From Betaproteobacteria bacterium CG2_30_68_42 (GTDB lineage Bacteria; Pseudomonadota; Gammaproteobacteria; Burkholderiales; Rhodocyclaceae): a stretch of DNA of 64,000 nt. The position numbers were made by a program, and so were the translations under genes. Shown piece after piece: positions 4,539 through 48,830 of this stretch; within the stretch, counting starts at the first letter, position 1; each line of letters opens with the position of its first letter. The notes under the pieces are model-generated. The model made no database searches. It saw only the letters and a program-made list of their open reading frames with translations, and had not been told where the DNA came from. The stretch lies in the NCBI GenBank assembly GCA_001872285.1, contig MNXU01000063.1:1-64000 (forward strand), given 5' to 3'.

Positions 4539-4568
4539 CGGCCGGTCGCGCCCGGCGGCGCGGTCCGG

Positions 4569-5351: not shown

Positions 5352-5364
5352 TTCATGCTCCCGT

Positions 5365-7389
5365 TCAAACGGTGGTCACTTCGCGCCACCCGCCGCACCG
5401 GCTGTGCGGCGGCAGGGCATCGCGCAGATCGAGCTGGGCGTCCCTCGCCTGGCATGCGGCGGCGGCCTCGACGATCCAGCGGTCGATCGCGGCGAACACG
5501 CGCCGCAATGCGGGTTCGTCGCCGTCGATCGATGCCAGTTGGGCGCGCAGGCTGTCGGCCGCGGAGCCGACCTGCAGCGCCTCGCCGCCGGCGAGGAAAT
5601 CCCGTGCCGCCGTGCCGACGATTCTGAGCTGCGCCTCGGCGCAGGCCGCGGCCTCTTCGGGTTTGCGCTGGAACAGGAAGGCCTCGCGGTAGGCGCGCTC
5701 GTGGGCCGCATCGAAGAAGTGGCGCGCGATGTCGACATCGTTCGCGGCGCCGCACTCGCCACCGCCCAGCGGAACGACGCGGAACGCGCCCGTTTCGCCG
5801 TGGTCGCGCGCGAGCGTGGCCGCCTCGTGAGGAGCGACCCGTTCCAGGTCGGCGAGCAGCGTCTCGAAGCGTTCGGCGCCGGCGCGCCGCGCCCATGCGA
5901 AGAAACGCTCGCCCTCGACGCTTTCCTCCTCGAAAGCCTGGCGCACGCGCGCCACCGCCTGCTCGATGCGCATCGCAGGGATCGACGGTCCCTTGAATCC
6001 CAGGGCGCCGCCGCCCATGCCGCTGCCGCCGAAGTAGGTGCGGTAGTGCGGCACCAGTCGTCCGGCGATGCGCCTGCCTTCGCCATAGATGCCGATGTCG
6101 GCGGCCTCCGGCTGGGCGCAGCCATTGTGGCAGCCTGAGACGCGGACGCGCAGGTCGTGGCGGCCACCGGAGAGTTTCGGTGCGAGTTCCAGCGAGCTGG
6201 TGATGCCCAGCCGGCAGGTCGAGCTGCCCGGGCAGGCGGCCACGTTGTCGCCGGCACGCGGTACCGACAGGCCCAGTTCGCCGATACGCGCCGCGACCGC
6301 GGCGAGGCTCGTCCGGGCCACACCGAGGAGGATCAGGTTCTGGTCCTGGGTCGTGCGGATGTCGTCGAGGCCGAGGTCGGCGAGCACGCGGGAGAGTCCG
6401 CGCAGGTGCGCGACGCTCAGGTGGCCGAGCGGCACGCTGACCGATAGGACGTAGCGGTCCGGCTGCTTCTGCGCGAAGAAGGTGCGCGGCGCGCCCGCAC
6501 CCGGAACGGGGCCGTCGTTTCCCGCAACCCACTTCCCCTTTGGCCACGGCCTGCCGGCCAGCGCCGCACGGGTGCGCGCGAACTCCGCCTCGAAGCGTGC
6601 GCGGAAGCCTTCCTGGCCGAAACGATCGACCAGGAACTTGAGCCGCGACTTCGCCCGCTTGGTGCGATCGGAGTACCGGTTATGGAGGGTGATGAGCGCC
6701 TCCAGCGCCCCAGTCAGATGCTCCTCGGCGACGAATGCCGCGAGCTGAATCGCCTCGTGCGGCTTGTGCCCCAGCCCGCCGCCCGCCAGCAGTCTGAACC
6801 CGCAGGCGCCGCCCTCGCGAACCGCGAGGATCGCCACGTCGTGGAACAGACCCTGGGCGCAATCCGCGGCGCAGCCCGAGAGGCTGATCTTGAACTTGCG
6901 CGGCATCTGCTGGTTCAGGGGATTGCGCAGGAAGTGCGCGACGACGCCGTCGAGATGGGTGGTGACATCGACGTGCTCGCGCGGGCACACGCCCGCCAGC
7001 GGGCAGGTGGTGATGTTGCGCACGGTGTTGCCGCAGGCCTCGCGCGTCGTCAGCCCGGCTGCGGCGAGCCGCCGCAGCACGGCGGGCGTCCCGGCCAGCG
7101 GCACGTGATGCAACTGGATGTCCTGGCGCGTCGTGATGTGGGCGTATTCGCTGCGGGAATGCGCTTCGAGCGCATCGGCGATCGCCCGCAGCCTGGCGAC
7201 ATCGAGACGGCCCCCGGGCAGCTTGATGCGCACCATGTTCACGCCTTCCTGGCGCTGCCCGTAGACGCCCATCTGCAGTCGCAGGCCGGTGAAGCGCTCG
7301 GCGTCGATCGTCCCGTCGGCGAGACGCCCGAGCGCCTCTTCGTAGTGGGCGATCTCGGAAGCGTCGGAGAGGTTGCGGAGGATGGTCAT
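5365..7389 (-). CDS. cysI: Assimilatory sulfite (nitrite/sulfite) reductase hemoprotein with C-terminal extension
   Basis: 674 residues. Six-electron reduction of sulfite to sulfide at a siroheme-[4Fe-4S] centre. The cluster cysteines are in CPGSSTC (about 386-392) and GCHNGC (about 419-424). The N-terminal half has the pseudo-repeat with TTRQDIQLHHV and CGNTVRNITTCP. The ATG at 7389 is chosen because AAAGGG sits just upstream and the protein then begins in the family's usual way; the open frame runs on another 57 codons without a start signal. Residues from about 560 to the end exceed the usual family length and form a helical tail of unknown role. First gene of the minus-strand cysI-cysH unit, divergent from cysB. 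Confidence 0.93.
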   Translation of the reverse strand: MTILRNLSDASEIAHYEEALGRLADGTIDAERFTGLRLQMGVYGQRQEGVNMVRIKLPGGRLDVARLRAIADALEAHSRSEYAHITTRQDIQLHHVPLAGTPAVLRRLAAAGLTTREACGNTVRNITTCPLAGVCPREHVDVTTHLDGVVAHFLRNPLNQQMPRKFKISLSGCAADCAQGLFHDVAILAVREGGACGFRLLAGGGLGHKPHEAIQLAAFVAEEHLTGALEALITLHNRYSDRTKRAKSRLKFLVDRFGQEGFRARFEAEFARTRAALAGRPWPKGKWVAGNDGPVPGAGAPRTFFAQKQPDRYVLSVSVPLGHLSVAHLRGLSRVLADLGLDDIRTTQDQNLILLGVARTSLAAVAARIGELGLSVPRAGDNVAACPGSSTCRLGITSSLELAPKLSGGRHDLRVRVSGCHNGCAQPEAADIGIYGEGRRIAGRLVPHYRTYFGGSGMGGGALGFKGPSIPAMRIEQAVARVRQAFEEESVEGERFFAWARRAGAERFETLLADLERVAPHEAATLARDHGETGAFRVVPLGGGECGAANDVDIARHFFDAAHERAYREAFLFQRKPEEAAACAEAQLRIVGTAARDFLAGGEALQVGSAADSLRAQLASIDGDEPALRRVFAAIDRWIVEAAAACQARDAQLDLRDALPPHSRCGGWREVTTV

Positions 7390-7400
7390 GTCGATCCCTT

Positions 7401-7523
7401 TCAGAACATCAGTCTTGCGCCGACCGGGACGAGCAGCGGCGTCATGAGCGCGCCGCCGCCCACACCGGTCAGGCCGACGATGGTGCCGACCGCAAGACCC
7501 GAGAGTGTGTAAGCCGTATTCAT
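7401..7523 (-). pseudogene. Deletion remnant of a TauE/SafE sulfite exporter gene
   Basis: A 40-codon open frame reading MNTAYTLSGLAVGTIVGLTG, then VGGGALMTPLL, then VPVGARLMF and stop. The first 31 codons are the unmistakable start of a TauE/SafE (DUF81) permease, with its first membrane helix and GVGGG motif. The last nine look like the end of the same family. About 200 internal codons are missing, apparently by an in-frame deletion. The original start, just upstream of cysI and divergent from cysB, is where betaproteobacteria often keep the sulfite exporter. The frame now acts at most as a leader peptide: its stop lies 11 bases before the cysI start. Confidence 0.7.
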
Positions 7524-7600
7524 GCGCGCGGGCAGTCAGGAGGTGGAGGCATGCTATCAAGCCGGCATAGACCGGAAAAAGACTTTGATGTTAGACTGCG

Positions 7601-7615
7601 ATAACGATTGGTTAT
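7601..7615 (+). promoter_or_regulatory. LysR-type operator dyad next to cysB start
   Basis: ATAAC-N5-GTTAT (arms 7601-7605 and 7611-7615) is a perfect 5-bp inverted repeat with the T/A-rich spacing of LysR-type boxes. It abuts the upstream ATG of the cysB gene (7616) and lies 9 bases before the alternative ATG at 7625. A CysB dimer here would block its own transcription or translation start and could also act on the divergent cysI unit. This is inference from position and symmetry. Confidence 0.5.
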
Positions 7616-8569
7616 ATGCCTCCCATGAACCTGCGGCAATTGCGCTACGTCTTCGAAACCGCCCGGCAGGGATTCAACATCTCCGGGGCGGCCGCGGCCC
7701 TGCACACGTCGCAGCCGGGCGTGTCGAAGCAGGTCCGCCTGCTGGAGGAGGAGCTGGGCGTTGCCGTCTTCGTCCGCCAGGGCAAGCGTCTGACGGGGAT
7801 CACCGAGCCGGGCGGCGAAGTGCTGAAGATCGCCGAGCGCATGCTGCGCGATGCGGACAACCTGCGCGCGATCGGGCGGGAGTTCGGCATCGAGGAGGCG
7901 GGCACGCTCGCGATCGCCACCACGCACACGCAGGCGCGCTATGTCCTGCCGCCGGTCATCCGCGAGTTCCTGCGGCGGCACCCCGCAGTGCGCGTGCATC
8001 TGCACCAGGGCAGCCCCTCCGAGGTGTGCCGATGCGTCCTGTCGGGCGAGGCCGACATCGCCATCGCCACCGAGGCGATCAACGACCAGGAGGGCCTCGC
8101 GATGCTGCCGTGCTACCGGTGGAACCGCTGCGTGATCGCGGCTCCCGGTCACCCCATCCTCGACGCAAGACCGCTGACGCTGGAGGAGATCGCGAAATAC
8201 CCGATCGTCACCTACGACTTCGCCTTCACCGGCCGCAGCCAGATCAACGCGGCCTTCGCGGCGCGGGGCCTCTCACCGAACGTGGTGCTCACGGCGATCG
8301 ACGCCGACATCATCAAGACCTACGTCGCGCTCGGTTTGGGCATCGGCATCGTGGCCTACATGGCCTACGAGCCCGGGCGCGACGCGGGACTGCGGGCCGT
8401 GGACGCCGCCCACCTGTTCGAATCGGCGACCACGCGCATCGGCTTGCGGCCCGGCACCTGGCTGCGCGGTTACGCCTTCACCTTCATCGAGCTGTTCGCC
8501 CCGCACCTCACCCGCGCGACGATCGCGGCGGCGGTTGCGGGAACCGAAGGCAGCGATCCCGGCCTGTAG
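7616..8569 (+). CDS. cysB: CysB-type LysR regulator of sulfate assimilation
   Basis: 317 residues, LysR family. The N-terminal winged helix (QLRYVFETARQGFNISGAAA, then LHTSQPGVSKQVRLLEEELG) matches the CysB/Cbl subgroup, and residues ~95-300 are the effector-binding domain, which in CysB binds N-acetylserine. It is transcribed divergently from cysI-cysH, the standard position for a LysR activator and its target. Two ATG codons are possible, 7616 and 7625. Neither has a strong Shine-Dalgarno sequence; the shorter form begins at the conserved MNLRQLRY. It probably activates cysIH and possibly cysDNC under sulfur limitation. Confidence 0.9.
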   Translation: MPPMNLRQLRYVFETARQGFNISGAAAALHTSQPGVSKQVRLLEEELGVAVFVRQGKRLTGITEPGGEVLKIAERMLRDADNLRAIGREFGIEEAGTLAIATTHTQARYVLPPVIREFLRRHPAVRVHLHQGSPSEVCRCVLSGEADIAIATEAINDQEGLAMLPCYRWNRCVIAAPGHPILDARPLTLEEIAKYPIVTYDFAFTGRSQINAAFAARGLSPNVVLTAIDADIIKTYVALGLGIGIVAYMAYEPGRDAGLRAVDAAHLFESATTRIGLRPGTWLRGYAFTFIELFAPHLTRATIAAAVAGTEGSDPGL

Positions 8570-8595
8570 GCGCAGCGGCGGTGGCGCAGGCACGA

Positions 8596-8657
8596 GATCG
8601 CTTCGTCGCTCCGCTCCTCGCAACGACAGGAAAGGGGTGCTTCGCTCCCCGCAATGG
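8596..8657. repeat. Interspersed 'GATCGCTTCGTCGC' repeat element
   Basis: Bases 8596-8627 read GATCGCTTCGTCGCTCCGCT then CCTCGCAACGAC, closely matching a short repeat (reverse form TCATTGCGAGGAGCGAAGCG) seen scattered in many environmental bacterial genomes. A second degenerate unit, GGGGTGCTTCGCTCCCCGC, follows at about 8634-8652. It fills the space between cysB and the racemase gene, which end towards each other. Confidence 0.55.
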
Positions 8658-8689
8658 CGTCTCCCCAGGCCAGCCGCGCACCCGCAACC

Positions 8690-8729
8690 GGAAACCTGGA
8701 ACCTGGAATCTGGAACCCGAAACCCGGAC
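8690..8729. repeat. Short degenerate tandem repeat (GGAACCT/GGAATCT units)
   Basis: About five imperfect 7-base units (GGAAACCT, GGAACCT, GGAATCT, GGAACCC, GAAACCC) run in tandem directly after the interspersed repeat. No coding function is apparent; this is intergenic low-complexity sequence. Confidence 0.5.
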
Positions 8730-8740
8730 GAGCGGAGCGA

Positions 8741-9430
8741 TCACGGCGGCTGACGCGCTGGCCGATTCATCCGCGACCGCAGGCGGCGCACCGCGCTCGC
8801 CGGCGTGGTGAGCACCGGCAGCGGCACGGCGCGCTCCACCGCAGGCGCCGCGCGTGCGAGACTGAATTGCGCCAGCGCGATCACGTCGCAGCCCATCGCA
8901 TGCGCGCTGCGTGCAGCTTCGACCGCGAGCCGGTCATGGGTGAGCGCATCGCCGGCACTGAGCGCCGCGAGCGCGCCTTCGGCGAGCACGGGGATCACTT
9001 CGACGCATGCCGGAAACTCGGCCGGCATCGACGCAAGCGCGGGCGCGAAGGTTGCGACGAGACCGATGCGCCTGCTGCGTCCTTCGGTGGCTGCGGCCCG
9101 CACGGCGTCGTCGATCATCGCCTCGTTGGGCTTCAACACCGCGAGATCCGGCCAGCGCGCCGCGACGGCGTCGATGCAGGGGCCGAACGCAGAGCACGTG
9201 AACAGGACTCCTTGCACGCCGGTGCCGATCGCGTAGGCGGCCAACGCCACGAAGCGCGCGGTCATCCGGTCGTCGAGCCCGGCAGCGCTGCGCGCGAGAT
9301 CCGCGGACAGGCTGTCGTCGAGCAGGTTCATGCGCACGCACTCCGGCCACACGCGCTCGAACTCCGCGTTGACCGGCGCAACCGAGAGCGAAAGCGCGTG
9401 GATCAGCGCGACGCGGGGCGCGGCATCCAC
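8741..9430 (-). CDS. Asp/Glu racemase family protein
   Basis: 229 residues. Family members use two cysteines to racemise or isomerise aspartate, glutamate, hydantoins or maleate. The first catalytic cysteine is in FTCSAFGPCID (near residue 78); the second is probably in AMGCDVIALAQFS (near 180). The start is a GTG at 9430 with GAGGA about eight bases upstream. It lies 55 bases after the TRAP permease and is almost certainly in its operon, which points to an acidic amino acid or dicarboxylate as the transported substrate. The exact reaction cannot be assigned from sequence; arylmalonate decarboxylase-like activity is an alternative. Confidence 0.75.
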   Translation of the reverse strand: MDAAPRVALIHALSLSVAPVNAEFERVWPECVRMNLLDDSLSADLARSAAGLDDRMTARFVALAAYAIGTGVQGVLFTCSAFGPCIDAVAARWPDLAVLKPNEAMIDDAVRAAATEGRSRRIGLVATFAPALASMPAEFPACVEVIPVLAEGALAALSAGDALTHDRLAVEAARSAHAMGCDVIALAQFSLARAAPAVERAVPLPVLTTPASAVRRLRSRMNRPARQPP

Positions 9431-36617: not shown

Positions 36618-37670
36618 GTGAACGCGCCCAGACAACGGGGTTGGATTGCGCGGCTGAGCGCCGGCGGCGCTCTCGCCCGGCCGGTGGCGATTTCGATGAT
36701 CGTGCTGTTCGCGCTGGTGCCGTGGCTACCGGGAGAATTCTGGACCCACGTCGGCACCGAAATTCTGATCTTCGGCCTGTTCGCGATGAGCTTCAACCTG
36801 CTCTATGGCTACATGGGGCAGATCTCGTTCGGTCACGCGGCGTTTTTCGGCATCGGCGCGTACGCCACCGCGATGCTGTTTACGGCGCTGAAGACTTCGG
36901 CCGGGGATATCGGTGTCGCCGAGTTCCTGTTGTCGCTCCTCGCCGGCCCGCCGGTGGCGGCGGCTGCGGCCCTGTTCATCGGCTTTTTCTGCGTGCGCCT
37001 GACCGGAATCTACTTTGCCATGCTCACGCTCGCATTTGGCGAGATGCTGTTCTACATCGTCTTTTCCTGGTACAGCTTCACCAAGGGCGACGACGGCATC
37101 CAGGGCCTGCTGCCGCCGGCCTTCTTCCAGGATTCGGACAATTTCTATTACTTCACGCTCGCGATCGTGATCCTGGCGCTTTTCGTCATGTGGCGAATCA
37201 CCGAGTCGCCTTTCGGCCTGACCTTGCGCACCCTTCGCGACAACCAGCGGCGCGCGGCATTCCTCGGCACGAACGTCAAGGCGCACATGCTTGCGAACTT
37301 CGTGATCGCGGGCACGTTCGCGGGACTCGCCGGGGCGCTCTGGGGTCCGTTCTCGCGCAGCGTGAATCCGGGTCTGCTCGGCTGGGGCGAGTCCGGCATC
37401 GCGGTGTTCATGACGCTGATCGGTGGCGCCGGCGCGTTCATCGGCCCGATCGTCGGCTCGGTGATCTACACGATGCTGCAGGCGGTGGTGAAGATGTACA
37501 CGATCTATTGGCCGCTCACCATCGGCAGCGTGATCCTGGTGATCGTTCTGTTCGCCCCCGGCGGAATCCTCGGAATCGTCGAGCGGCGCCTGCGTGCGGC
37601 GCGACCGGAGGGCGGGACCAACGGCGGCGATCCCGTGGCCGGAGCGGGCGAGACGGAGTCGCGGCAGTGA
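36618..37670 (+). CDS. livM: ABC transporter permease, LivM type (second importer)
   Basis: 350 residues, about ten membrane helices. Contains LLYGYMGQISFGHAAFFGIGAYA, FGLTLRTLRDNQRRAAFLGTNV cut short here, and GGAGAFIGPIVGSVIYTML, all typical of LivM. GTG start at 36618 just after livH. The stop overlaps the livG GTG by four bases. A polar C-terminal tail of ~30 residues extends past the last helix. Confidence 0.9.
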   Translation: MNAPRQRGWIARLSAGGALARPVAISMIVLFALVPWLPGEFWTHVGTEILIFGLFAMSFNLLYGYMGQISFGHAAFFGIGAYATAMLFTALKTSAGDIGVAEFLLSLLAGPPVAAAAALFIGFFCVRLTGIYFAMLTLAFGEMLFYIVFSWYSFTKGDDGIQGLLPPAFFQDSDNFYYFTLAIVILALFVMWRITESPFGLTLRTLRDNQRRAAFLGTNVKAHMLANFVIAGTFAGLAGALWGPFSRSVNPGLLGWGESGIAVFMTLIGGAGAFIGPIVGSVIYTMLQAVVKMYTIYWPLTIGSVILVIVLFAPGGILGIVERRLRAARPEGGTNGGDPVAGAGETESRQ

Positions 37671-38419
37671 ACCGGAACATTCTCGAGGTCACCGGGCTGG
37701 AAAAGCATTTCGGTGGCGTGCACGTCACGCGCAACGTTCATTTCTCGATGGAAGAGGGCGAGCAGTCGGCGATCATCGGTCCGAACGGCGCCGGCAAGAG
37801 CACGTTCATGAATCTGCTCACCGGCTTCCACCGCCCCGACGGCGGCAAGGTGGTTTTCGCGGGCAGGGACATCACCGGGCTGCCGCCGCACAAGGTGGCA
37901 CGCTGCGGCATCTCGCGTGCCTTCCAGGTCAGCAGCATCTTTGCGCGCATGACGGTCGTGGAGAACGTGCGCGCCGCGGTGCACGCGCAGATGCGCGCGA
38001 CGTTTCGCCTGTTCGCGCCGGCGCGCGCCATCGGCGCGGAGGAAACCGAGCGGGTGCTCGCCCTGTGCGCGATGGAGGATAAACGCGAGCTGACGGCGGG
38101 AGAGCTCGCGCAGGGCGACAAGAAGCGGCTCGAGCTCGCGATCGCGCTGGCGGGGAAGCCCCGCCTGCTGTTCCTCGACGAGCCGACGGCGGGCATGTCG
38201 ATCGAGGAGGCGCGCTCGACCATGGAGCTGGTCGACCGCCTCAACCGCGAGCTGAAGCTCACCGTCCTTTTTACCGAGCACGACATGGAAATCGTGTTCA
38301 ATCACGCGCGCACGCTGACTCTGTTGCACCGTGGCGAGATCATCGTCCAGGGCACACCGGCGGAGGTGCGCTCCAACGAGACCGCCCAGAAGGTCTACCT
38401 GGGCGAACACCACGCGTAG
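37667..38419 (+). CDS. livG: ABC transporter ATP-binding protein, LivG type (second importer)
   Basis: 250 residues. Walker A GPNGAGKST, signature region LAQGDKKRLELAIAL, Walker B LLFLDEPTAGM and TEHDMEIVF. The GTG start at 37667 overlaps the livM stop (GTGA). Followed after six bases by livF. Pairs with LivF at the membrane to drive uptake. Confidence 0.92.
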   Translation: MNRNILEVTGLEKHFGGVHVTRNVHFSMEEGEQSAIIGPNGAGKSTFMNLLTGFHRPDGGKVVFAGRDITGLPPHKVARCGISRAFQVSSIFARMTVVENVRAAVHAQMRATFRLFAPARAIGAEETERVLALCAMEDKRELTAGELAQGDKKRLELAIALAGKPRLLFLDEPTAGMSIEEARSTMELVDRLNRELKLTVLFTEHDMEIVFNHARTLTLLHRGEIIVQGTPAEVRSNETAQKVYLGEHHA

Positions 38420-38425
38420 AACTCC

Positions 38426-39133
38426 ATGCTGTATCTCGAAGCTCAGGGCGTCCACACCTGGTACGACACCAGCCACATCCTGTTCGATGTGTCGCTGGAG
38501 GTGCATGAGGGCGAGTCGGTGTGTCTGCTCGGCCGCAATGGCGCCGGCAAGACCACCACCCTCAAGACCCTCATGGGGCTCGTTCCGGCGCGCTCCGGCG
38601 CGATCCGTTTCAACGGCACATCGCTCACCGGCCGCGAGCCCTACGAGATCGCCCGGCTGGGAGTCGGTTACGTTCCGGATGAACGGCTGATCTTTCCGGA
38701 CCTCACGGTGCGCGAGAATCTCGAGCTCGGCATCAAGAAGGGTCGCGCGAGTGGTCCCTCGTGGACGGTGGAGCGGGTGTATGAGATCTTTCCCGTGCTC
38801 ATTCCGCTCGATCGGCGCCTGGGCGGATACCTGTCGGGCGGCGAGCAGCAGATGCTCACCATCGGGCGCACGCTGATGGGTCATCCGTCGCTGCTGCTTC
38901 TCGACGAGCCGGTCGAGGGCGTGGCGCCGGTCGTCGTGCAGGAACTCACGCGGCAGATCCTGAAGCTCAAGGGCATGGGCCTCACCATTCTGTTCGCGGA
39001 GCAGAACATGCACTTCGCGCAGGAAGTCTCGGACCGGGCCTACGTGATCGAAAAGGGTCGCATCCGCTTCCACGGCACCATGCACGAGCTGCAGGCGAAC
39101 GACGAAGTGAAGTCGAAGTACCTGATGATCTAG
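38426..39133 (+). CDS. livF: ABC transporter ATP-binding protein, LivF type (second importer)
   Basis: 235 residues, full length. Walker A GRNGAGKTT, LSGGEQQMLTIGRTLM, LLLLDEPVEGVAP and FAEQNMHFA, all standard for LivF. Last gene of the importer; the GMC oxidoreductase starts 32 bases later on the same strand and is probably co-transcribed. Confidence 0.92.
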   Translation: MLYLEAQGVHTWYDTSHILFDVSLEVHEGESVCLLGRNGAGKTTTLKTLMGLVPARSGAIRFNGTSLTGREPYEIARLGVGYVPDERLIFPDLTVRENLELGIKKGRASGPSWTVERVYEIFPVLIPLDRRLGGYLSGGEQQMLTIGRTLMGHPSLLLLDEPVEGVAPVVVQELTRQILKLKGMGLTILFAEQNMHFAQEVSDRAYVIEKGRIRFHGTMHELQANDEVKSKYLMI

Positions 39134-41011: not shown

Positions 41012-41545
41012 ATGACCGCTCTTCGCACCGCCCGGATGCTCGCGCGCTACAACGCATGGGCGAACGAACGGATCTTCGACGCCGTCGCCCGATTGCCCGA
41101 CGGCGAGGCGACGAAGCCCCGGCGCAGTCTGTTCAGGAACATCGTTCACACGCTCAACCACAACTACGTCATCGACCGCGTCTTCCAGGCCCATCTCCAG
41201 GGGCGCGAGCACGGCTACACCGAGCGCAATACCGCCGAGTGCCCGCCGCTGGGGGAGTTGTGGAACGCGCAGCAGGCCGTCGACCGCTGGTATGTCGCCT
41301 GGAGCGACGGGCTCACCGACGCGACGCTGAACGAGCGCGTGAGCTTCACCTTCATCGGCGGCGGCCGGGGCGAAATGACCCGCGGGGATCTTCTCCTGCA
41401 CCTCGTCAACCACACGACCTACCACCGCGGCTTCGTCGCCGACCTCTTCTATCAGGTGCCCGTCGTCCCGCCCACGACCGATCTCACCGTATTCCTCCGG
41501 GACGCGGCGCCGGAGCCGTCGAGCGCGGGAGTCCGAACCGGTTGA
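41012..41545 (+). CDS. DinB family protein
   Basis: 177 residues, four-helix-bundle DinB/YfiT family. Metal-ligand histidines appear in NIVHTLNHNYVIDRVF and HLVNHTTYHRGFVADL. Members are metal-dependent thiol transferases or stress proteins; the role here is unknown. The ATG at 41012 begins the usual MTALRTARMLARYNAWANER; the open frame runs upstream through the repeat element and should not be used. The 3' end overlaps the convergent membrane-protein gene by 94 bases. Confidence 0.88.
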   Translation: MTALRTARMLARYNAWANERIFDAVARLPDGEATKPRRSLFRNIVHTLNHNYVIDRVFQAHLQGREHGYTERNTAECPPLGELWNAQQAVDRWYVAWSDGLTDATLNERVSFTFIGGGRGEMTRGDLLLHLVNHTTYHRGFVADLFYQVPVVPPTTDLTVFLRDAAPEPSSAGVRTG

Positions 41546-42186
41546 GCATGGCGTCGAACCTGCGCGTTGTTCCGGGGCAGGTGGGCCGGCCATCGCGGGC
41601 TCCCGAATAACGGTGCCCAGGCGGCGATGACGGCATAGGCCGCGGCGACGATCAGCAGCGCGATTCCGGTGCGAAGTTGATCGTCGAACAGATAGACGGC
41701 ACAAAGCCGTTGCGGTGCTTCCGCAAATCCCCAGCCGAAACGCGCCAGGGTTGCGATGACTTCGACGTGAACGACCACCCGCGCGAGCGGCGGGCAGCGT
41801 GGCCAGGACAGCGCAAGGGCCGCGCCGGAAGCCGAAAGTGAAACGAACTTCAGGAGAGCGACGCGGAAGTCGAGCACGGCGGCATCCACCAGCCGCGGCA
41901 GCATCCACAGCATGAGGAGGATGGCCGCAACGGCGAGCCCCGCGGCGCCGCCGCGCAGGAGCGCGTCAACCCCGCGCCCGAGCGCCCGCCGGCGCGGGGT
42001 CGTCCAGACCACCATCGCACCGAGGAGCACCAGCGCCGGGTACTGAACCATCAGTTGCAGCACCATCGACGATTCGAGCAGGCTGCGCGCGGGCGGGGTC
42101 AGCAACAGCGCCCACAGACCCAGCGCGATCCAGCGGCCCGGCGCCGCCGCGCGCAGGTCGATGCATTCAGCGCAGGGCGAGGGCAT
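41452..42186 (-). CDS. Membrane protein of the norSY-senC-orf1 cluster
   Basis: 244 residues with about six hydrophobic helices (WIALGLWALLLTPPA, LMVQYPALVLLGAMVVW, GLAVAAILLMLWMLP, and others). It starts at the ATG at 42186, overlapping senC by 20 bases, so the two are coupled. Its position after the CuA subunit, subunit I and SenC is that of 'orf1' in sNOR operons, where the product is thought to help assembly. The last ~35 residues are polar, Arg-rich and encoded opposite the DinB gene; the original stop may have been lost. Function is by context only. Confidence 0.65.
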   Translation of the reverse strand: MPSPCAECIDLRAAAPGRWIALGLWALLLTPPARSLLESSMVLQLMVQYPALVLLGAMVVWTTPRRRALGRGVDALLRGGAAGLAVAAILLMLWMLPRLVDAAVLDFRVALLKFVSLSASGAALALSWPRCPPLARVVVHVEVIATLARFGWGFAEAPQRLCAVYLFDDQLRTGIALLIVAAAYAVIAAWAPLFGSPRWPAHLPRNNAQVRRHAQPVRTPALDGSGAASRRNTVRSVVGGTTGT

Positions 42187-42811
42187 GAAACGGAAGCTCC
42201 CGCTGCGCCAGCGTGCGCGCGAGCTCCAGTGCCGCCGGCCATTGTTCGACATCGAACACTGCGACCAGACGGCCACGCGCATCGACCACGTTCAGCGTCG
42301 CGTTGTGCGTGAAGCCGCCCAGCCCGTCGGGAATCGCGATCACGCCGAAGGCCCGGAACCACGCTGCCCGCGCCTGCTCCGAGGGCGTACGGGCGACGAT
42401 CCAGTCGGTGCCGGCGCGATGGGAGCGGCGATAGTGCGCGAGTGCGGCGGGGGTGTCGCGCTCGAGGTCGAAGGCCACGCTGAGCAGCTTGACGCGATCA
42501 TGGCGAAGCTCGTCGTTCAGCTCGCGTTGCAGTGTGCCGAATGTGCCGCCGAGCTGGCTGCACACGGCGGGACAGGCGGTATAGATGAAATCGACGATCA
42601 GCACCCGTCCCGCCAGATCCCGGGCACGTATTTCGCTGCCGTGCGGATCGAGCAGGGCGGCAGTGGGCAGCGGGCGCGGCGAGCGGGCGATTTCCAGGCG
42701 GCGGGCGGTCTCGGTCGTGAAGGCAGCGAAGCCGTCCGTCGCCTGCCAGAACACCACGCCGCCGCTGAACAGCACCAGCGTCGTGGCGAGCCACGACAGC
42801 CAGCGCATCAT
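42167..42811 (-). CDS. senC: SCO1/SenC copper chaperone
   Basis: 214 residues: an N-terminal membrane anchor (WLATTLVLFSGGVVFW) and a thioredoxin-like periplasmic domain. Copper-binding residues are the CPAVC motif in FIYTACPAVCSQLGG and the distal His in GGFTHNATLNVVD. SCO proteins insert copper into, and reduce, the CuA centre of subunit II, encoded two genes upstream. The ATG at 42811 overlaps the subunit I stop by four bases. Confidence 0.92.
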   Translation of the reverse strand: MMRWLSWLATTLVLFSGGVVFWQATDGFAAFTTETARRLEIARSPRPLPTAALLDPHGSEIRARDLAGRVLIVDFIYTACPAVCSQLGGTFGTLQRELNDELRHDRVKLLSVAFDLERDTPAALAHYRRSHRAGTDWIVARTPSEQARAAWFRAFGVIAIPDGLGGFTHNATLNVVDARGRLVAVFDVEQWPAALELARTLAQRELPFHALALR

Positions 42812-44271
42812 CCAACCGTCTTCCCGAGCTGCGGGAGGCGCCGTACGATGACGAGCGCCAACGACACAACGGAAACCACCACCACGGCAGCCGCGATCGA
42901 TCCGACGCTCGCAACCGGCAGCCATTCGGATACATGAACCGCGAAACGACGCGGAACGCCGTTCGCTCCGCCATAGAGGAAGCTCAGGCAGAACACGGCG
43001 CCCGCGATCGCGTAGCCCCAGAATGCCGCCCGCTGGAAACTGCTGTCTTCACCGCGCAGTTGCACGGCCCAGGCCATGAAGCCCAACAGCATCGGCAGCA
43101 GACCGAGCAGCAGGTAGGTGTGGAAATGACCCGGCACCCACTGGGTGTTGTGCATGACCAGATTGACGCTGATCGTTCCATCGACGACCGCCGGTACGAT
43201 CCCCGCCGCCCAGCCGAGCACGCCGAACACGAGCAGGCGCGAAGGCAGATCCCAGCGGATGCCCGAACGCGCGATATTTCCCAGCGTTCCCCAGGCGGTG
43301 ACGATCAGAACCGGGATGCCCGAAAGGTAGGAGACAACCTGGCCGAGCGTCGCGGCCCATTTCGGCATGGCATAATCCATGAGCAGGTGATGCGGGTATA
43401 CGGCCAGGACGAGAAACACCGCGGCCAGCCATGCGGCGATGAAGGGGCGGTTGACCTTCCATGGGCGGTTCGTGTAGCGCGGCAGGATCTCATAGACCGC
43501 GATGACCCCCATGTAGAGCGCCACGTTGATGAAGACGTGGCCGAAGAAGAAGATGAGATTCTTCATCAGCAGCGCGTCGAAGACCATGCCCGGGATATAC
43601 AGACTGACCAGGGTCATGATCAGCACGACGGCGCCGGCAAGGATTCCGAGCACGTTGACGATGATCGCCATGGTGCTGGCGACGACCGCCGCCGGCGGTG
43701 CTTCCTCGACCCGTCCGGAGATCAGTTGCGGCACACCCAGCGAGGCGGTCAGCGAGCCGTAACGCCGGATCAGCGCCAGCGCGCAATCCGCGTAGAAGAG
43801 CAGGAAGCCGACGCCGATCAGGATCAGCCCGACGACGAAAGCGGCGGCGGCGGCGGGTTGCCACACGCCCATGGATTTTGCGGGCAGCGGATAGAGGAAA
43901 GTCCAGGCGCCGGCATAATGACCCAGAAGAATCCCGCCGATGATGAGGACGACGCCGGCCAGCGAGAGCCCGAACGTGGTGAGCATGACCTTGCTCGACA
44001 GGCGGACATGGCGGCCCAGGAAATACCACATCACGAATGCGCCGCCGAGTCCCGCGGTGCCGACCATGCCGGTGCCGTGCAGGGTCATCAGCTCGTAGAA
44101 ACGATCGACCGGCAGATCGACCCAGGTCGCCTGCGCGGACCGCATCAGGAAGCCCACGATCATCATCAGCGCAAAAACCGCGATCGCGGTCGTCGCGTAG
44201 GCCAGCAGGACCAGACGTTCGGACGCTGTTGCGGCGCTGTCCGCCGGCGTTTGTTTCGGCTCGGATACCAT
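42808..44271 (-). CDS. norY: Heme-copper oxidase superfamily subunit I, probable sNOR-type nitric oxide reductase
   Basis: 487 residues, about 12 membrane helices. Heme and CuB ligands are visible: His65 (LMTLHGTGMVG), His245 (FFFGHVFIN), His294-His295 (YPHHLLMDY), His382 and His384 (VPGHFHTY). In oxygen reductases of A and B type the residue four after the first CuB His is a Tyr cross-linked to it (GHPEVY); here it is Asn249 and the Pro-Glu is absent. That argues against ordinary O2 reduction. The gene order CuA subunit, subunit I, SenC, orf1 is that of norSY-senC-orf1 of ammonia-oxidising betaproteobacteria, so I call NorY. A divergent ba3-type oxidase is the alternative. Confidence 0.72.
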   Translation of the reverse strand: MVSEPKQTPADSAATASERLVLLAYATTAIAVFALMMIVGFLMRSAQATWVDLPVDRFYELMTLHGTGMVGTAGLGGAFVMWYFLGRHVRLSSKVMLTTFGLSLAGVVLIIGGILLGHYAGAWTFLYPLPAKSMGVWQPAAAAAFVVGLILIGVGFLLFYADCALALIRRYGSLTASLGVPQLISGRVEEAPPAAVVASTMAIIVNVLGILAGAVVLIMTLVSLYIPGMVFDALLMKNLIFFFGHVFINVALYMGVIAVYEILPRYTNRPWKVNRPFIAAWLAAVFLVLAVYPHHLLMDYAMPKWAATLGQVVSYLSGIPVLIVTAWGTLGNIARSGIRWDLPSRLLVFGVLGWAAGIVPAVVDGTISVNLVMHNTQWVPGHFHTYLLLGLLPMLLGFMAWAVQLRGEDSSFQRAAFWGYAIAGAVFCLSFLYGGANGVPRRFAVHVSEWLPVASVGSIAAAVVVVSVVSLALVIVRRLPQLGKTVG

Positions 44272-44284
44272 GGTCGTTTCCCTC

Positions 44285-44797
44285 TCACTCGGCGACAGCG
44301 GTAATCGTGGCGAGCATGCCGTGGTGCGCCAGCCCGCAGTATTCCAGGCACAGGATTTCGTATTGCCCGGGTTCATCGAAGGTCAGGCGCAAGCGGTTGA
44401 CGAACCCCGGCATGGCCTGGGTCTGACCGATAATCCGCGTCTTCCCCCGGTAGACACTGAAGCCGTGATTGACGTCGGCCGAGGTGACCCGGAACTCGAC
44501 CGGTTTGCCGACCGGCACGGTGGACTCCGAGAGATCCCATCGCCACTGATGGCCGACGGCATCGATGACCTTGGCTGCCGGCGCCGGATTTGCTGCGTAG
44601 GCCGGTAGCGGCCACGGGGAGAGGGTGGTGAGGGTGATGAGCACGCCGGCGATCAGTGTCAGCGCGAAAACCACGGCACGGCCCCGGTAGGGGTTGCGGA
44701 GTTCGCGCTCGCCGGCGGCGCCCCGGCACACGATCACGAAAGCGGCCGTGATCAGTGCCATCAGGAACAGGCTCAGGGACCAGGCTACGCTTTGCAT
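44285..44797 (-). CDS. norS: CuA-containing subunit II, probable sNOR-type nitric oxide reductase
   Basis: 170 residues, short for an oxidase subunit II. Two N-terminal membrane helices (5-24 and about 42-62), then a cupredoxin domain. The CuA site is complete: His111 (DVNHGF), Cys150, Glu152, Cys154, His158 and Met161 (CLEYCGLAHHGM). It accepts electrons from cytochrome c in the periplasm and passes them to subunit I. The ATG at 44797 follows AAAAGGAGACGGCG. It is 13 bases before norY and 42 bases after the CcdA-like gene. Confidence 0.75.
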   Translation of the reverse strand: MQSVAWSLSLFLMALITAAFVIVCRGAAGERELRNPYRGRAVVFALTLIAGVLITLTTLSPWPLPAYAANPAPAAKVIDAVGHQWRWDLSESTVPVGKPVEFRVTSADVNHGFSVYRGKTRIIGQTQAMPGFVNRLRLTFDEPGQYEILCLEYCGLAHHGMLATITAVAE

Positions 44798-44839
44798 CGC
44801 CGTCTCCTTTTCAGAAAATGGGGCCGTCGCCCCGGACGC

Positions 44840-45568
44840 TCACAGCGAGGTTCCGATCCCCGTGAGCCAGGCCGGTGCGGCATCGAGCACCCAGGCTTCG
44901 ACCTGCTTGTCCACTCCGGTGAGGATGAAGGCGCCGAGCACCAGCATGACCGCGCCGAGTGCCTTCTTGCCCCACTGGCCGGTGGCGAGCAGCCTGCCGC
45001 GCATCCGCAGCATGGCTTCGCGGGAGAGCGAGCCCAGCAGGAGCAGCGGCAGACCCGCTCCCAGGCCGAAGAGCGCCATCACCAGCGTGACCTGCGCGAG
45101 ATGCGTGCCCTGGCTGGCCAGCGTGATCGTGGCGCCCAGGGTCGGCCCGACGCACGGGCTCCAGACCACGCCGAGCAGCAGGCCGAGGATGAACTGGCCG
45201 GACAGCCCATCGAGATCGAGTCGCGACAGCAGGCCGCCTCCGGCTCCCGAGAGTCCGGAGGTCGCCACCGCGAAACGCTCCTGCAGCGCGCGCGACAGCA
45301 GCAGGATGCCGAACCCGAGCAGGATCACGGCCGCGACGTTGCGGAAGATCGTCTGGTCCAGTCCGAGGGCGGCGCCCGCGCTGGCGAGCACCACGCCGAG
45401 CAGGGTGAAGGAGAGCGTCAGCCCGGCCGCCAGCGCGGCGGGACCGGCGCGATGGGCGGTGGCCGCGGTGGCGATCAGCACCGGCAAGAGTGGCAGCACG
45501 CACGGCGACAGGGTGGACAGGCTGCCCGCCGCAAGCGCGATGCCGTAGGTTCCGAGGCCGAATTCCAC
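44840..45568 (-). CDS. CcdA/DsbD-type transmembrane thiol-electron transporter
   Basis: 242 residues, six helices, with the paired cysteines of the family: LSTLSPCVLPLLPV in the first helix and GVVWSPCVGPTLGA in the middle. It moves reducing equivalents from cytoplasmic thioredoxin to periplasmic thiol proteins. The GTG at 45568 is chosen: GAGGCGG lies just before it, eight bases after the thioredoxin-like gene. With that neighbour, and SenC downstream, it likely keeps the CuA cysteines or the chaperone reduced during oxidase/NOR assembly. Confidence 0.88.
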   Translation of the reverse strand: MEFGLGTYGIALAAGSLSTLSPCVLPLLPVLIATAATAHRAGPAALAAGLTLSFTLLGVVLASAGAALGLDQTIFRNVAAVILLGFGILLLSRALQERFAVATSGLSGAGGGLLSRLDLDGLSGQFILGLLLGVVWSPCVGPTLGATITLASQGTHLAQVTLVMALFGLGAGLPLLLLGSLSREAMLRMRGRLLATGQWGKKALGAVMLVLGAFILTGVDKQVEAWVLDAAPAWLTGIGTSL

Positions 45569-45576
45569 GGCCCGCC

Positions 45577-45966
45577 TCAGAGGGCCTTGTCGAGCTGCGC
45601 GGCGATCGCCCCGGGCGCAGTCTGGGCGGTGGAGCGCGAGACCTCGCGCGCGCCCTTGAACACGATGAGCGTGCTCTGGTACTGCACGCCGAAGCGCCGC
45701 ACCGCGTCCTTCTGCCTGTCGAAGTCCACCCGATAGACCGTGAAGCCGGCATATTTCGGCGACTTTAGCAGCGCTTCGATGACCGGTTCCTGCGCGCGGC
45801 AGGTTCCGCACCAGTCGGCATGGATGGCCACCAGGACCGGCTTGCCGGCCTGCTGTGTGGCATCGAATGCGGTGCGCGAAAACGGCGCGCCGACCGCGAG
45901 GGCCGCGGTGGCGAAGAACGCCCCGGCGAGGAGCGGAACCAGGGAACGGGTCAGGCGAAGATGCAT
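45577..45966 (-). CDS. Periplasmic thioredoxin-like protein
   Basis: 129 residues with a cleavable signal (ending LAVGAP region) and a thioredoxin fold carrying the redox motif HADWCGTCRAQEPV. It probably receives electrons from the CcdA-like protein encoded next and reduces copper-site cysteines of the CuA subunit or SenC. Likely first gene of the thioredoxin-ccdA-norS-norY-senC-orf1 operon. Confidence 0.85.
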   Translation of the reverse strand: MHLRLTRSLVPLLAGAFFATAALAVGAPFSRTAFDATQQAGKPVLVAIHADWCGTCRAQEPVIEALLKSPKYAGFTVYRVDFDRQKDAVRRFGVQYQSTLIVFKGAREVSRSTAQTAPGAIAAQLDKAL

Positions 45967-46088
45967 GGAGTTTCTCCGTTGGTTGGACAGGAACGGGGGT
46001 TCGCGCGGCCGCCACTCCTCTTCGTCGCGTGGAATTTCATGTTCTTACACCGGAGAGGCGGCGCGGCGGCCCGCCACGCGGAACACGC

Positions 46089-46361
46089 TCAACGCTCCGG
46101 CTCCCGGGCGTCCGCGTGCCTGCTGCCCGGCTCGTGGATCGGCAGCGCCCGGGCGCCGCTCCAGGCGGAGACGCAGAACGGCACCAGATAGTTGAGCGCC
46201 ACGTTGCCCATCATCAGCCCTTGGCCGGCCATCAGGTACTCGCCCTGATTGATCAGGTTGAGCGCGGTGCCGACGACCACACTAACCTTGAGGGCGTTGC
46301 AGACGATCTTGCGCGAGCTCATCGCGCGAAAGAAACGCCGCCAGTAACCCAGCGTGCGCAT
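46089..46361 (-). CDS. NrtS-like nitrate/nitrite transporter
   Basis: 90 residues with two hydrophobic segments around the motif NALKVSVVVGTALNLINQGE and a second helix near GNVALNYLVPFCVSAW. This matches the small NrtS family, described as a nitrate/nitrite transporter in cyanobacteria. It lies 11 bases after the EAL gene on the same strand and 122 bases upstream of the nitric oxide reductase cluster, so a nitrogen-oxide theme is plausible. The start could instead be the Met at residue 14. Confidence 0.65.
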   Translation of the reverse strand: MRTLGYWRRFFRAMSSRKIVCNALKVSVVVGTALNLINQGEYLMAGQGLMMGNVALNYLVPFCVSAWSGARALPIHEPGSRHADAREPER

Positions 46362-46372
46362 GGGCGCGGGGT

Positions 46373-48646
46373 TCAGGCAGCGCAACTGCGTATCGAGCGC
46401 TGCTGTTCGAGCATGGCGCGCACCTCGAAGGCGGGCCTGGGCCGGCTGAAGAAATAACCCTGGATTTCGTCGCAGCCGTAGTCGCGCAGCAGGCGCAGGT
46501 GGGCCTCGGTCTCCACCCCCTCGGCGATGACGGTCAGCCCGAGGCTGTGGCCGAGCGTGATCACGGTGCGGGCGATGGCCGCGTCGCTCGGATCCTCGTG
46601 CATGTTGCGCACGAACGACTGGTCGACCTTCAGCTTGTCGATGGGGAAGCGCTTGAGGTAGGCGAGCGAAGAGTGGCCGGTGCCGAAGTCGTCGATCGAC
46701 AGCCGCACGCCGAGGGTCTTGAAGGCGTGGAGGGTGGCGACCGCCGCCTCGACATCGTGCATCGCCGCGCCCTCGGTGACCTCCAGTTCGAGCCGTTCCG
46801 GGGGAAGGCCGCTGCGGCGCAGTGCGTGCAGCACCCTCCTGGGCAGCTCCGGATCGGCGAACTGGCGAGGCGAGATGTTCACCGCCATGACGAGCGGCGG
46901 CAGGCCGACGTTCTGCCATTGGCGGGCCTGGGCACAGGCGTGCTCCAGCACCCAGGCGCCGATCTCGACGATGGCGCCGCTCTCCTCCGCGATCGGAATG
47001 AAGTCGGAGGGTGGAATCAGGCCCCTGTCGGGATGCCGCCAGGAGACCAGCGCCTCGACGCCGGCGATGCGGCCGCTGCCGATCTCCACCTGCGGCTGGT
47101 AACGCAGTTCGAGTTCCCCGCGCTCGACAGCGCGCCTGAGCCGGTGTTCGGTCTCGAGCCGCTCCAACGCCCGCGCGCTCATGTCCTCGGCATAGCGAAG
47201 CGCACGATGGCCGCCTGCGCGCCTGGCCCCCTGCAACGCGGTGTCGGCATTGCGCAGCAGCGCGGCAACATCCCGGCCGTCCTGCGGGAAGACCGCGAAC
47301 CCGATGCTGAACGAGAAATACATCTCGCGCCCCTCGATGATGAAGGGCGCGGCCATCTCCCGCGTAATCCGCGCCGCAAAGGCATCGGCCTCATCCGCAG
47401 CGCCGATCACCGGCAGCAGCGCGGCGAACAGCTCGCCGTCGAAACGGTGCAGGCAGCAGGCGATCGAATCGTCTCCGGCCAGCGGCTCGATCCGCCTCGC
47501 GATGCCGCACAGCACGCGGTCGGCGAAGGCGTGTCCGAGCGTATCGACCACCGGCTGGAAGCGGTCGGCAGCGAGCAACAGCACTGCGCCCGTGTGCCCG
47601 CCATCGAGTGCCGCCGCGATCCGGTTCTCGAAGGCGAGGCGGTTGGGAAGGCGGGTCAGCACATCGTGAAACGCCTGGAATTCGAGCTGTTCCTGCGCCG
47701 TGCTGCGCTCGGTGACGTCGGACAGATAGACATGGAAGGCGCCGGAATCGGCCAGGCGATGAATGCTGATGGCGAGGACCCGCTCCGCGATGCGGTATTC
47801 CCGCTGTACGCGTTCGGTCGCATCCCGGCGAAGCGCGTCCAGCCACGACGCGAGGTCCTCGGACAGCAGCGCCGACGGCCCCTGCACGCCCAGCCTGCGC
47901 GCCATCGCCACGGCTCCCGGATTGGCGTAGGCCAGCGCGCCGCCTTCGTCGAGGCTGATCACGGGATTCGGGTTGCGCTCCGGGAACAGTGCGAGACGCT
48001 GGCGCTCGCGGATGCCGCGCAGATGGGCATCGAAGAAATAGCCGATGACGGCGGCAGCGGCGAGCAGCAGTGCACTGAACAGCGTGACCAGCCGCAGGAT
48101 GTCCGCAAGCCGCTCCCGCGTCGCATCGCCGCGCTCCTCGGCCTGCGTCTGCACACCGCCGACGAGTACGTCGAAGCGGTCCGTCAGTTCGGTCGCATTC
48201 ACCGAGATGCGGCCGAGCAATTTGCTCACTTCGCCGATATCGACACGGCTGGAATCGAGTTCGCGGTCGAGGGCCGAGAGCAGCCGGTCCCCGTCGCGCT
48301 GGAGCGCGCGCAGCGCGTCGAGCAGGGCGCGGCCTTCGGGATCGGTGATCGCCTCGTCCAGGCGGGTCATGCGCGAGGCAGTTCGTCGCTGCAACTCGGC
48401 GTGGCGGCTGCCGAACCGCTCACGGTCGGTGGTGTCGTAGAGTTCGCGGGCGATGCGCTCGCCATCCATGGCGGCGACTTTCAGTTCCGAGATTGCCCGC
48501 AGCGCCGGCAGGTCACGATCGACCAGCGGGCGCGCGACATCGAGCACCGCCTCGCTGCGCACCCAGGTGAGCCACGACAGCAAACCGCCCATCACGAGCG
48601 CCGCAGCGCTCAAGGCCCACCAGCGAACTTCCATGCGTGCGCGCAC
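46373..48646 (-). CDS. Membrane-bound GGDEF-EAL protein, probable c-di-GMP phosphodiesterase
   Basis: 757 residues: TM helix at ~7-25, a periplasmic four-helix sensing region to ~200, a second TM, a PAS-like segment, then GGDEF and EAL domains. The GGDEF signature is degenerate (RFDGELF), so cyclase activity is unlikely. The EAL domain keeps GVEALVSW, NISPRQF, EVTEGA, DDFGTGHSSLAYLKRF and EGVET and should hydrolyse c-di-GMP. I chose the GTG at 48646 because GGAGAG precedes it by eight bases; a TTG at 48691 and an ATG at 48634 are alternatives. NrtS follows directly. Confidence 0.88.
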   Translation of the reverse strand: MRARMEVRWWALSAAALVMGGLLSWLTWVRSEAVLDVARPLVDRDLPALRAISELKVAAMDGERIARELYDTTDRERFGSRHAELQRRTASRMTRLDEAITDPEGRALLDALRALQRDGDRLLSALDRELDSSRVDIGEVSKLLGRISVNATELTDRFDVLVGGVQTQAEERGDATRERLADILRLVTLFSALLLAAAAVIGYFFDAHLRGIRERQRLALFPERNPNPVISLDEGGALAYANPGAVAMARRLGVQGPSALLSEDLASWLDALRRDATERVQREYRIAERVLAISIHRLADSGAFHVYLSDVTERSTAQEQLEFQAFHDVLTRLPNRLAFENRIAAALDGGHTGAVLLLAADRFQPVVDTLGHAFADRVLCGIARRIEPLAGDDSIACCLHRFDGELFAALLPVIGAADEADAFAARITREMAAPFIIEGREMYFSFSIGFAVFPQDGRDVAALLRNADTALQGARRAGGHRALRYAEDMSARALERLETEHRLRRAVERGELELRYQPQVEIGSGRIAGVEALVSWRHPDRGLIPPSDFIPIAEESGAIVEIGAWVLEHACAQARQWQNVGLPPLVMAVNISPRQFADPELPRRVLHALRRSGLPPERLELEVTEGAAMHDVEAAVATLHAFKTLGVRLSIDDFGTGHSSLAYLKRFPIDKLKVDQSFVRNMHEDPSDAAIARTVITLGHSLGLTVIAEGVETEAHLRLLRDYGCDEIQGYFFSRPRPAFEVRAMLEQQRSIRSCAA

Positions 48647-48830
48647 CTGAGTCTCTCCGTTGATCACCGCGTACGCGGCAGCGATCGGCAAGGCATCGAT
48701 CGGAGCCGGTAGACGCTTGCACGGACGCGTTCCTTACGGCCGGCGTGCCGCGTAAGAAGCGGCTTCGGCGGCGCGACCAACCAGCGGATGAGGCCGGCGG
48801 TCCGGCAGCGCGATCTACCGGGAAAAGCGA

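What the first reader, a model, noticed from the sequence alone, without database searches (positions are those of the whole stretch)
41452..46361. A norSY-senC-orf1 cluster with its own thiol and copper maturation genes and an NrtS neighbour
Six tightly packed minus-strand genes (thioredoxin-like, CcdA, CuA subunit, heme-copper subunit I, SenC, membrane orf) match the order known from sNOR loci of ammonia-oxidising betaproteobacteria. Subunit I has all heme/CuB histidines, but Asn249 stands where oxygen reductases have the cross-linked Tyr, and the GHPE motif is GHVF. A complete CuA site remains in subunit II. A small NrtS-like nitrate/nitrite transporter lies nearby. If right, this is a CuA-dependent NO reductase with dedicated copper/thiol maturation. 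The order and residues are seen; the NO activity is inferred.
Basis: partly seen in the sequence, partly recalled or inferred. Interest (0 to 1): 0.75.

Follow-up and report, generated by a model that had tools for sequence, protein, structure and literature searches.

The report
Putative sNOR nitric oxide reductase operon
A bacterium with nitrite-reductase genes carries a copy of a known but biochemically uncharacterised copper-dependent nitric oxide reductase (sNOR); the sequence evidence favours nitric oxide over oxygen as its substrate, but the locus itself is an ordinary member of that family.

Summary
On the minus strand lie Trx, CcdA, a CuA subunit, heme-copper subunit I, SenC and orf1, with a small NrtS upstream. 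The last four genes of the row form an sNOR operon (norSY-senC-orf1): 78 of 80 named relatives keep all four in order, the other two lack only orf1. Subunit I falls in a 100/100-supported clade with homologues from two amoA-bearing genomes, Nitrococcus mobilis and Ruegeria pomeroyi; grouping it with ba3 oxidases is rejected (AU p = 1e-5). Asn249, the published sNOR residue, is invariant (88 of 88). NsrR/RirA-like Rrf2 regulators flank 25 of 86 sNOR loci, which favours NO metabolism. Two parts of the interpretation weaken: a CcdA homologue was seen in none of the 80 loci, and the same Trx-CcdA pair stands alone in genomes without a detected sNOR; NrtS adjacency was not seen elsewhere. Added here: orf1 resembles a diverged Caa3_CtaG-type assembly factor lacking its histidines, and the same genome carries nirS near an eNOR-like oxidase. 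NO activity remains unproven. Verdict: new member of a known kind, with a modest contribution to the NO-versus-O2 question for sNOR.

The parts
42808..44271 (-). NorY-like subunit I (487 aa), heme-copper oxidase superfamily; Asn249 at 43525-43527, Tyr253, H65/H245/H294/H295/H382/H384
   Evidence: COX1 1.7e-47; N249 and Y253 88/88, H245/H295/H382/H384/H65 88/88, H294 87/88; tree
44285..44797 (-). NorS-like CuA subunit II (170 aa), full CuA ligand set H111, C150, E152, C154, H158, M161
   Evidence: COX2 3.6e-9; ligands in 87-88 of 88
42167..42811 (-). SenC/Sco1 copper chaperone-like (214 aa), C118xxxC122 and H207 (numbering of the longer frame 42167-42925)
   Evidence: SCO1-SenC 4.4e-13; Cys 86/86 each, His 85/86
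41452..42186 (-). orf1, multi-helix membrane protein, proposed diverged Caa3_CtaG-type assembly factor
   Evidence: conserved in 78 of 80 loci; profile-profile match to CtaG 87.8%, P 3.3e-6, three control profiles 0.15-0.36%; no Pfam family over its cut-off
44840..45568 (-). CcdA/DsbD_TM-type thiol transporter; locus-specific neighbour
   Evidence: DsbD_TM 1.2e-13; not found in 80 named sNOR loci
45577..45966 (-). periplasmic thioredoxin-like protein, WCGTC
   Evidence: Thioredoxin 3.9e-14
46089..46361 (-). NrtS-like small membrane protein (90 aa), locus-specific neighbour
   Evidence: NF038050 28.1 bits, cut-off 25, E 1.4e-6

Best explanation
The four genes 41452-44797 encode an sNOR: a CuA-containing, presumably cytochrome c-dependent nitric oxide reductase of the heme-copper superfamily, plus its two assembly factors. 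Electrons enter CuA in NorS, pass the low-spin heme (H65/H384) and reach a heme/CuB site (H382; H245, H294, H295) where two NO are reduced to N2O; Asn249 replaces the cross-linked Tyr that O2 reductases use as electron and proton donor for O-O cleavage. SenC loads CuA; orf1 is a diverged CtaG-like factor, probably for copper insertion into subunit I. Shown here: genes, residues, conservation, phylogeny, neighbourhood. Inferred: substrate, electron donor, roles of SenC and orf1. Trx-CcdA upstream may keep the Sco/CuA cysteines reduced, but it is a general module that happens to sit here.
For: CuA-subunit I-SenC-orf1 in order in 78 of 80 named loci, CuA and SenC in 80 of 80, and in both amoA-bearing genomes G396 and G633. 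Asn249 in 88 of 88 and in all ten further loci that were not in that set (L139 looks like the same genome as L028). sNOR = Asn in Table A4 of PMC8756737, which lists Silicibacter; the Ruegeria (formerly Silicibacter) pomeroyi protein is 54% identical. sNOR clade 100/100 in two trees; window+ba3 clade rejected, p-AU 1.09e-5. Rrf2 regulators occupy 25 of 284 nearest-two neighbour places against 1 of 314 further places (Fisher p 1e-7); 7 of 10 scanned score best against NsrR. NirC-type transporters in 6 of 113 downstream neighbours, NnrS in 2 of 123 upstream. Own genome has NirS (509 bits).
Against: No NO turnover shown for any sNOR in the papers seen; PMC11388526 lists sNOR as proposed, not characterised. 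PMC6967387 argues for a high-affinity O2 reductase from induction under O2 limitation. None of 10 regulators scanned reached the NsrR cut-off and 3 scored best as RirA; the window itself has no Rrf2 neighbour. In the unpicked class sample, nir genes occur in 3 of 8 sNOR genomes against 51 of 266 others, not significant (p 0.19). An eNOR-like oxidase near nirS in the same genome could be its main NO reductase. K-path residues are partly retained (Y260, T325).
Confidence: 0.85

Rival explanations
1. The enzyme is a high-affinity terminal O2 reductase of the B family that tolerates NO, with NO reduction as a side activity.
For: Proposed in PMC6967387 from transcript rises of 2.7- to 10.8-fold under O2 limitation in N. 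europaea. Profile search matches ba3 chains among the best; K-path positions Y260 and T325 are retained.
Against: Tyr of the cross-link is Asn in 88 of 88; the cbb3-type alternative position is Val; separate clade from ba3; NsrR/RirA-like regulators and NirC-type transporters next door. The genome already has an aa3-type and a cbb3-like oxidase by motif.
Confidence: 0.12
2. Trx and CcdA are a dedicated part of the sNOR system, delivering reductant to SenC and the CuA cysteines of NorS.
For: Same strand, 42 bp before norS, no sigma-70-like promoter found between (this GC-rich genome makes the scan weak). Thiol reduction of Sco/CuA by such pairs is general knowledge (recalled).
Against: No CcdA homologue in 80 named loci, one distant Trx hit at L077; DsbD_TM and Thioredoxin are not among the 25 commonest neighbour families on either side (lists capped, 236 of 270 neighbours scanned). 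Pair stands alone in G320, G285, G278, which have no sNOR at E <= 1e-20. A terminator-like hairpin (score near the shuffle range) lies at 44833-44820 between CcdA and norS.
Confidence: 0.25
3. The enzyme belongs to another Asn- or Gln-bearing CuA NO reductase family (bNOR/CuANOR, eNOR, nNOR) rather than sNOR.
For: bNOR/CuANOR also has Asn (PMC8756737 Table A4); Bacillus azotoformans type II cluster shows a similar gene set (PMC3475470).
Against: eNOR has Gln at this place and the own-genome Gln enzyme lies outside the clade. Type I CuANOR subunit I is about 569 aa (1707 nt) against 487 here; no bNOR or nNOR sequence was in my trees, so this is not a direct test.
Confidence: 0.04

Closest known systems
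sNOR (norSY-senC-orf1) of ammonia oxidisers and Nitrococcus
   Same: Gene order, Asn at the Tyr position, CuA subunit, SenC, orf1; same clade
   Different: Host genome has no detectable amoA (with two positive genomes in the same search); Trx-CcdA and NrtS upstream
Ruegeria (Silicibacter) pomeroyi DSS-3 megaplasmid sNOR
   Same: 54% identical subunit I, same four genes
   Different: Rrf2 regulator and formate/nitrite transporter flank it; the window has NrtS and no Rrf2 neighbour
qCuANOR / bNOR of Bacillus azotoformans
   Same: CuA subunit, SenC and a membrane protein in the cluster; Asn
   Different: Type I subunit I is longer; not placed in my trees
ba3-type O2 reductases (Thermus; 7deg)
   Same: B-family fold and ligands; N249 aligns with the Tyr237 position, Y260 with Tyr248 (ba3 residue numbers partly recalled)
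   Different: Cross-linked Tyr absent; separate clade
Caa3_CtaG assembly factor (for orf1)
   Same: Profile-profile 87.8%, collinear over 147 columns, shared W-x-x-P-x-x-x-D-A-A and D-Q-x-x-x-G patterns
   Different: No window histidine aligns with the CtaG histidines; below Pfam cut-offs

Membership tests
sNOR | Asn in place of the cross-linked Tyr (PMC8756737 Table A4) | tested here: met
   N249; 88 of 88
sNOR | Intact heme and CuB histidines in subunit I | tested here: met
   H65, H245, H295, H382, H384 88/88, H294 87/88
sNOR | CuA-bearing cupredoxin subunit II | tested here: met
   All ligands present
sNOR | Gene order norS-norY-senC-orf1 | tested here: met
   78 of 80 named loci in this order, and two amoA-bearing genomes
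sNOR | Phylogenetic place with nitrifier NorY | tested here: met
   100/100 clade with rows from two amoA-bearing genomes and Nitrococcus; long-branch warnings concern the outgroups
sNOR | No proton channel (PMC8756737 Table A4: 0) | tested here: inconclusive
   Two K-path positions kept (Y260, T325), others changed (V256 for Tyr244)
sNOR | NO to N2O activity | not testable with these tools
   needs protein
ba3 O2 reductase | H-x-x-x-Y cross-linked Tyr | tested here: not met
   Asn249
ba3 O2 reductase | Branches with ba3 oxidases | tested here: not met
   AU p 1.09e-5
cbb3 O2 reductase | Alternative active-site Tyr in helix VII | tested here: not met
   Val288 at the counted position, V in 85 of 88 (own cbb3-like sequence)
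eNOR | Gln at the Tyr position | tested here: not met
   Asn249; the own-genome C41 enzyme has Gln
bNOR/CuANOR | Place in a tree with bNOR references | not tested
   no bNOR sequence was at hand in the trees
NrtS | NCBIfam NF038050 cut-off | tested here: met
   28.1 bits against 25
Caa3_CtaG (orf1) | Pfam PF09678 gathering score | tested here: not met
   1 of 46 orf1 proteins at E 0.11, window not among its listed matches
Caa3_CtaG (orf1) | Conserved histidines | tested here: not met
   no window His opposite them; Met95 opposite the W-H-x-P His
Caa3_CtaG (orf1) | Remote profile homology | tested here: met
   87.8%, P 3.3e-6; controls 0.15-0.36%

The most novel reading that the evidence does not exclude
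sNOR is a dedicated, NO-regulated NO reductase whose active site uses the invariant Asn249-Tyr253 pair on one helix in place of the cross-linked Tyr, and whose copper centre in subunit I is built by orf1, a CtaG descendant that exchanged its histidines for other residues (invariant Cys162, nearly invariant Met95). In this lineage a Trx-CcdA pair has been recruited to feed the Sco/CuA step, so that the enzyme carries a private assembly line.
Probability: 0.2. Interest if true: 0.6.

Novelty: new member of a known kind. Interest (0 to 1): 0.36.

Why it matters
Whether sNOR reduces NO or O2 is disputed in print (PMC6967387) and matters for N2O budgets of nitrifiers and denitrifiers. The locus adds a non-ammonia-oxidising carrier, shows that loss of the active-site Tyr is invariant over the sampled family, and links the operon statistically to NsrR/RirA-like regulators and nitrite transporters. 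The CtaG resemblance gives orf1, described in PMC3475470 (for the Bacillus counterpart) as a possible third subunit, a testable role. Such enzymes are easily annotated as cytochrome oxidases, so NO-reducing potential is overlooked.

Tried and rejected
Rejected: ba3 or cbb3 O2 reductase membership; a conserved Trx-CcdA module; an amoA-bearing host (alone rang nowhere, rang in two genomes and not in G000). Led nowhere: Foldseek of the orf1 model against PDB and BFVD gave nothing at E <= 0.001, which does not show a new fold; VIA-align of the subunit I model lists heme-copper subunit I chains, best Z 37.6, and does not separate families. The promoter scan found none. Denitrification gene co-occurrence: with 35 chosen sNOR genomes, 18 have NirK-like (E <= 1e-50) or full-length NirS matches, against 54 of 274 class genomes. 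26 of the 35 were loci I picked, mostly isolates or long contigs, so I do not lean on that; the unpicked sample gives 3 of 8 against 51 of 266 (p 0.19). An antisense-prone first neighbour clustering was discarded for the codon-usage gene calls.

Papers: passages only of PMC8756737, PMC11388526, PMC12569097, PMC4940428, PMC3475470, PMC3772326, PMC6094997; passages and section 12 of PMC6967387; other papers as search listings. Hemp and Gennis 2008, Murali et al. and Stein et al. were not seen.

Full report
Anatomy. The minus-strand row runs NrtS 46089-46361, Trx 45577-45966, CcdA 44840-45568, CuA subunit 44285-44797, subunit I 42808-44271, SenC 42167-42811, orf1 41452-42186. Gaps are 122, 8, 42 and 13 bp, then overlaps of 4 and 20 bp. 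Orf1 runs about 94 bp into a convergent plus-strand gene (41036-41545), which by its sequence looks DinB-like (recalled, not scanned).

What the core is. The scan of genome contigs with subunit I kept the best 80 of 106 relatives. In those 80 named loci the CuA gene and SenC are found in 80 and orf1 in 78, all four in order in 78; the two without orf1 (L071, L084) end within or just after SenC. Two genomes of the same order that carry the AMO family (G396, G633) have the same four genes in order. Prevalence is low: 8 of 274 class genomes at E <= 1e-40, 2 of 61 relatives at 1e-20, 9 of 349 order genomes at 1e-60, each count including the window's own genome.

Active site. Over 88 aligned subunit I sequences (window plus 87 loci) H245, H295, H382, H384, H65 and N249 are invariant and H294 is 87 of 88. 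Ten more loci also show Asn; one of them (L139) looks like the same genome as L028. Table A4 of PMC8756737 gives Asn for sNOR, Gln for eNOR, Glu for c/qNOR, Tyr for O2 reductases, and Asn also for CuANOR. Against ba3, N249 takes the Tyr237 place, Y260 the Tyr248 place and V256 the Tyr244 place (alignment; numbering partly recalled), so K-path residues are partly kept. Tyr253 is invariant; being eight residues from H245 on one helix it should be too far for a cross-link (inference). The AlphaFold2 model (pLDDT 85.7) is an HCO fold, best Z 37.6 to Rhodobacter aa3; no distances were measured.

Phylogeny. In a 47-row tree the 36 sNOR rows form a 100/100 clade on a long branch; within it the window is in a 19-row set (99/98) with Nitrococcus mobilis and the L132 row from an amoA-bearing genome; its nearest rows are betaproteobacterial. 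The sister place of sNOR to ba3 plus the eNOR-like enzymes is weaker (94/81), and the program warns of long branches meeting there.

Neighbourhood. The commonest neighbour family is Rrf2: 11 of 123 upstream and 14 of 113 downstream neighbours, in 25 of 86 loci, all 25 with at least three cysteines, three of them in one closely spaced cluster. They fill 25 of 284 nearest-two places against 1 of 314 further places, Fisher p 1e-7. Ten were scanned singly: seven score best as NsrR and three as RirA, none over the equivalog cut-off. PMC3772326 lists NsrR (Noc2967) with SenC, NorY, NorS (Noc2969-2971) in Nitrosococcus oceani (passage). NirC/formate-nitrite transporters make 6 of 113 downstream neighbours and NnrS 2 of 123 upstream. 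The window itself has no Rrf2 neighbour, and NrtS is not among the 25 commonest NCBIfam families on either side (lists capped).

Trx-CcdA. With the window proteins as BLAST queries no CcdA and one distant Trx hit (L077) appear in the 80 loci; several of those loci have short flanks. In 61 relatives CcdA matches at E <= 1e-10 in 9 including G000. The pair is intact, without sNOR at 1e-20, in G320 (CcdA 80%), G285 (68%) and G278 (43%). So it is a free-standing module; recruitment here is possible but not shown.

orf1. It is under every Pfam cut-off; DUF1404 matches 13 of 46 members, best 0.0022, and Caa3_CtaG 1 of 46 at 0.11. The profile of 46 orf1 proteins matches a profile of 11 CtaG proteins at 87.8%, P 3.3e-6, over 147 columns, against 0.15, 0.36 and 0.26% for CcdA, formate/nitrite transporter and subunit I profiles (the first two control alignments are small, 4 and 3 rows). 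The aligned Q170 and G174 of orf1 are invariant, as are their CtaG partners. In Thermomicrobium roseum, where a distant sNOR-like pair (37%) lies on a plasmid, an ordinary CtaG (173.7 bits) and a formate/nitrite transporter follow it. I therefore propose that orf1 is a diverged CtaG-type copper-assembly factor rather than a third subunit, the suggestion made for the Bacillus counterpart in PMC3475470.

Own genome. G000 (3.1 Mb, 95 contigs, 99.97% complete) has six COX1-family proteins: by motif an aa3 type (C89, HPEVY), a cbb3-like one (C30), this sNOR, a CuA-linked one with Gln at the Tyr position (C41, eNOR signature) about 8.5 kb from a full-length NirS match, and two odd ones. No NirK over 1e-50 was found. 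None of the six looks like cNOR or qNOR by motif; no NorB model was run. If the C41 enzyme is the respiratory NO reductase, sNOR may serve NO removal at low O2 (inference).

Judgement. sNOR membership is as good as sequence can make it; NO as substrate is likely (about 0.85) but rests on inference; the dedicated thiol line is unsupported. The finding is a new member of a known kind.

Noticed in passing
G000:C53:64926-66587 (L116:6927-8591), outside the window: Heme-copper-like 554-aa protein (COX1 122 bits) beside a His/Met-rich cupredoxin-like protein and what look by sequence like a copper P-type ATPase and a two-component system; the usual PGHFH reads PGYFH and HH reads YH, so the high-spin heme ligand seems replaced by Tyr. 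A homologue at E <= 1e-40 was found in no other of 274 class genomes.
   Followed up: partly
G000:C41:27567-28889 and 37350-38528 (L115, L119), outside the window: CuA-linked oxidase with GHSSQQ (Gln at the Tyr position, eNOR signature) on the same contig as a NirS match and NirF/NirN-like matches.
   Followed up: partly
G000:C3:57723-58940 (L117:6673-8049), outside the window: 458-aa COX1-family protein (42 bits) with GGHVLQF and no HH pair, beside SCO-like and heme O synthase-like genes.
   Followed up: no
L138 (G653) 4464-9289: Two SenC and two orf1 homologues around one CuA/subunit I pair, and a second heme-copper protein with GHNVLG upstream.
   Followed up: no
L106 (Thermomicrobium roseum plasmid) 5447-9241: Distant sNOR-like pair with GHTLVN, followed by a formate/nitrite transporter and an ordinary CtaG instead of SenC and orf1.
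   Followed up: partly
window 46373-48691: Long minus-strand gene upstream of NrtS that by sequence looks like a GGDEF-EAL cyclic-di-GMP protein (not scanned).
   Followed up: no
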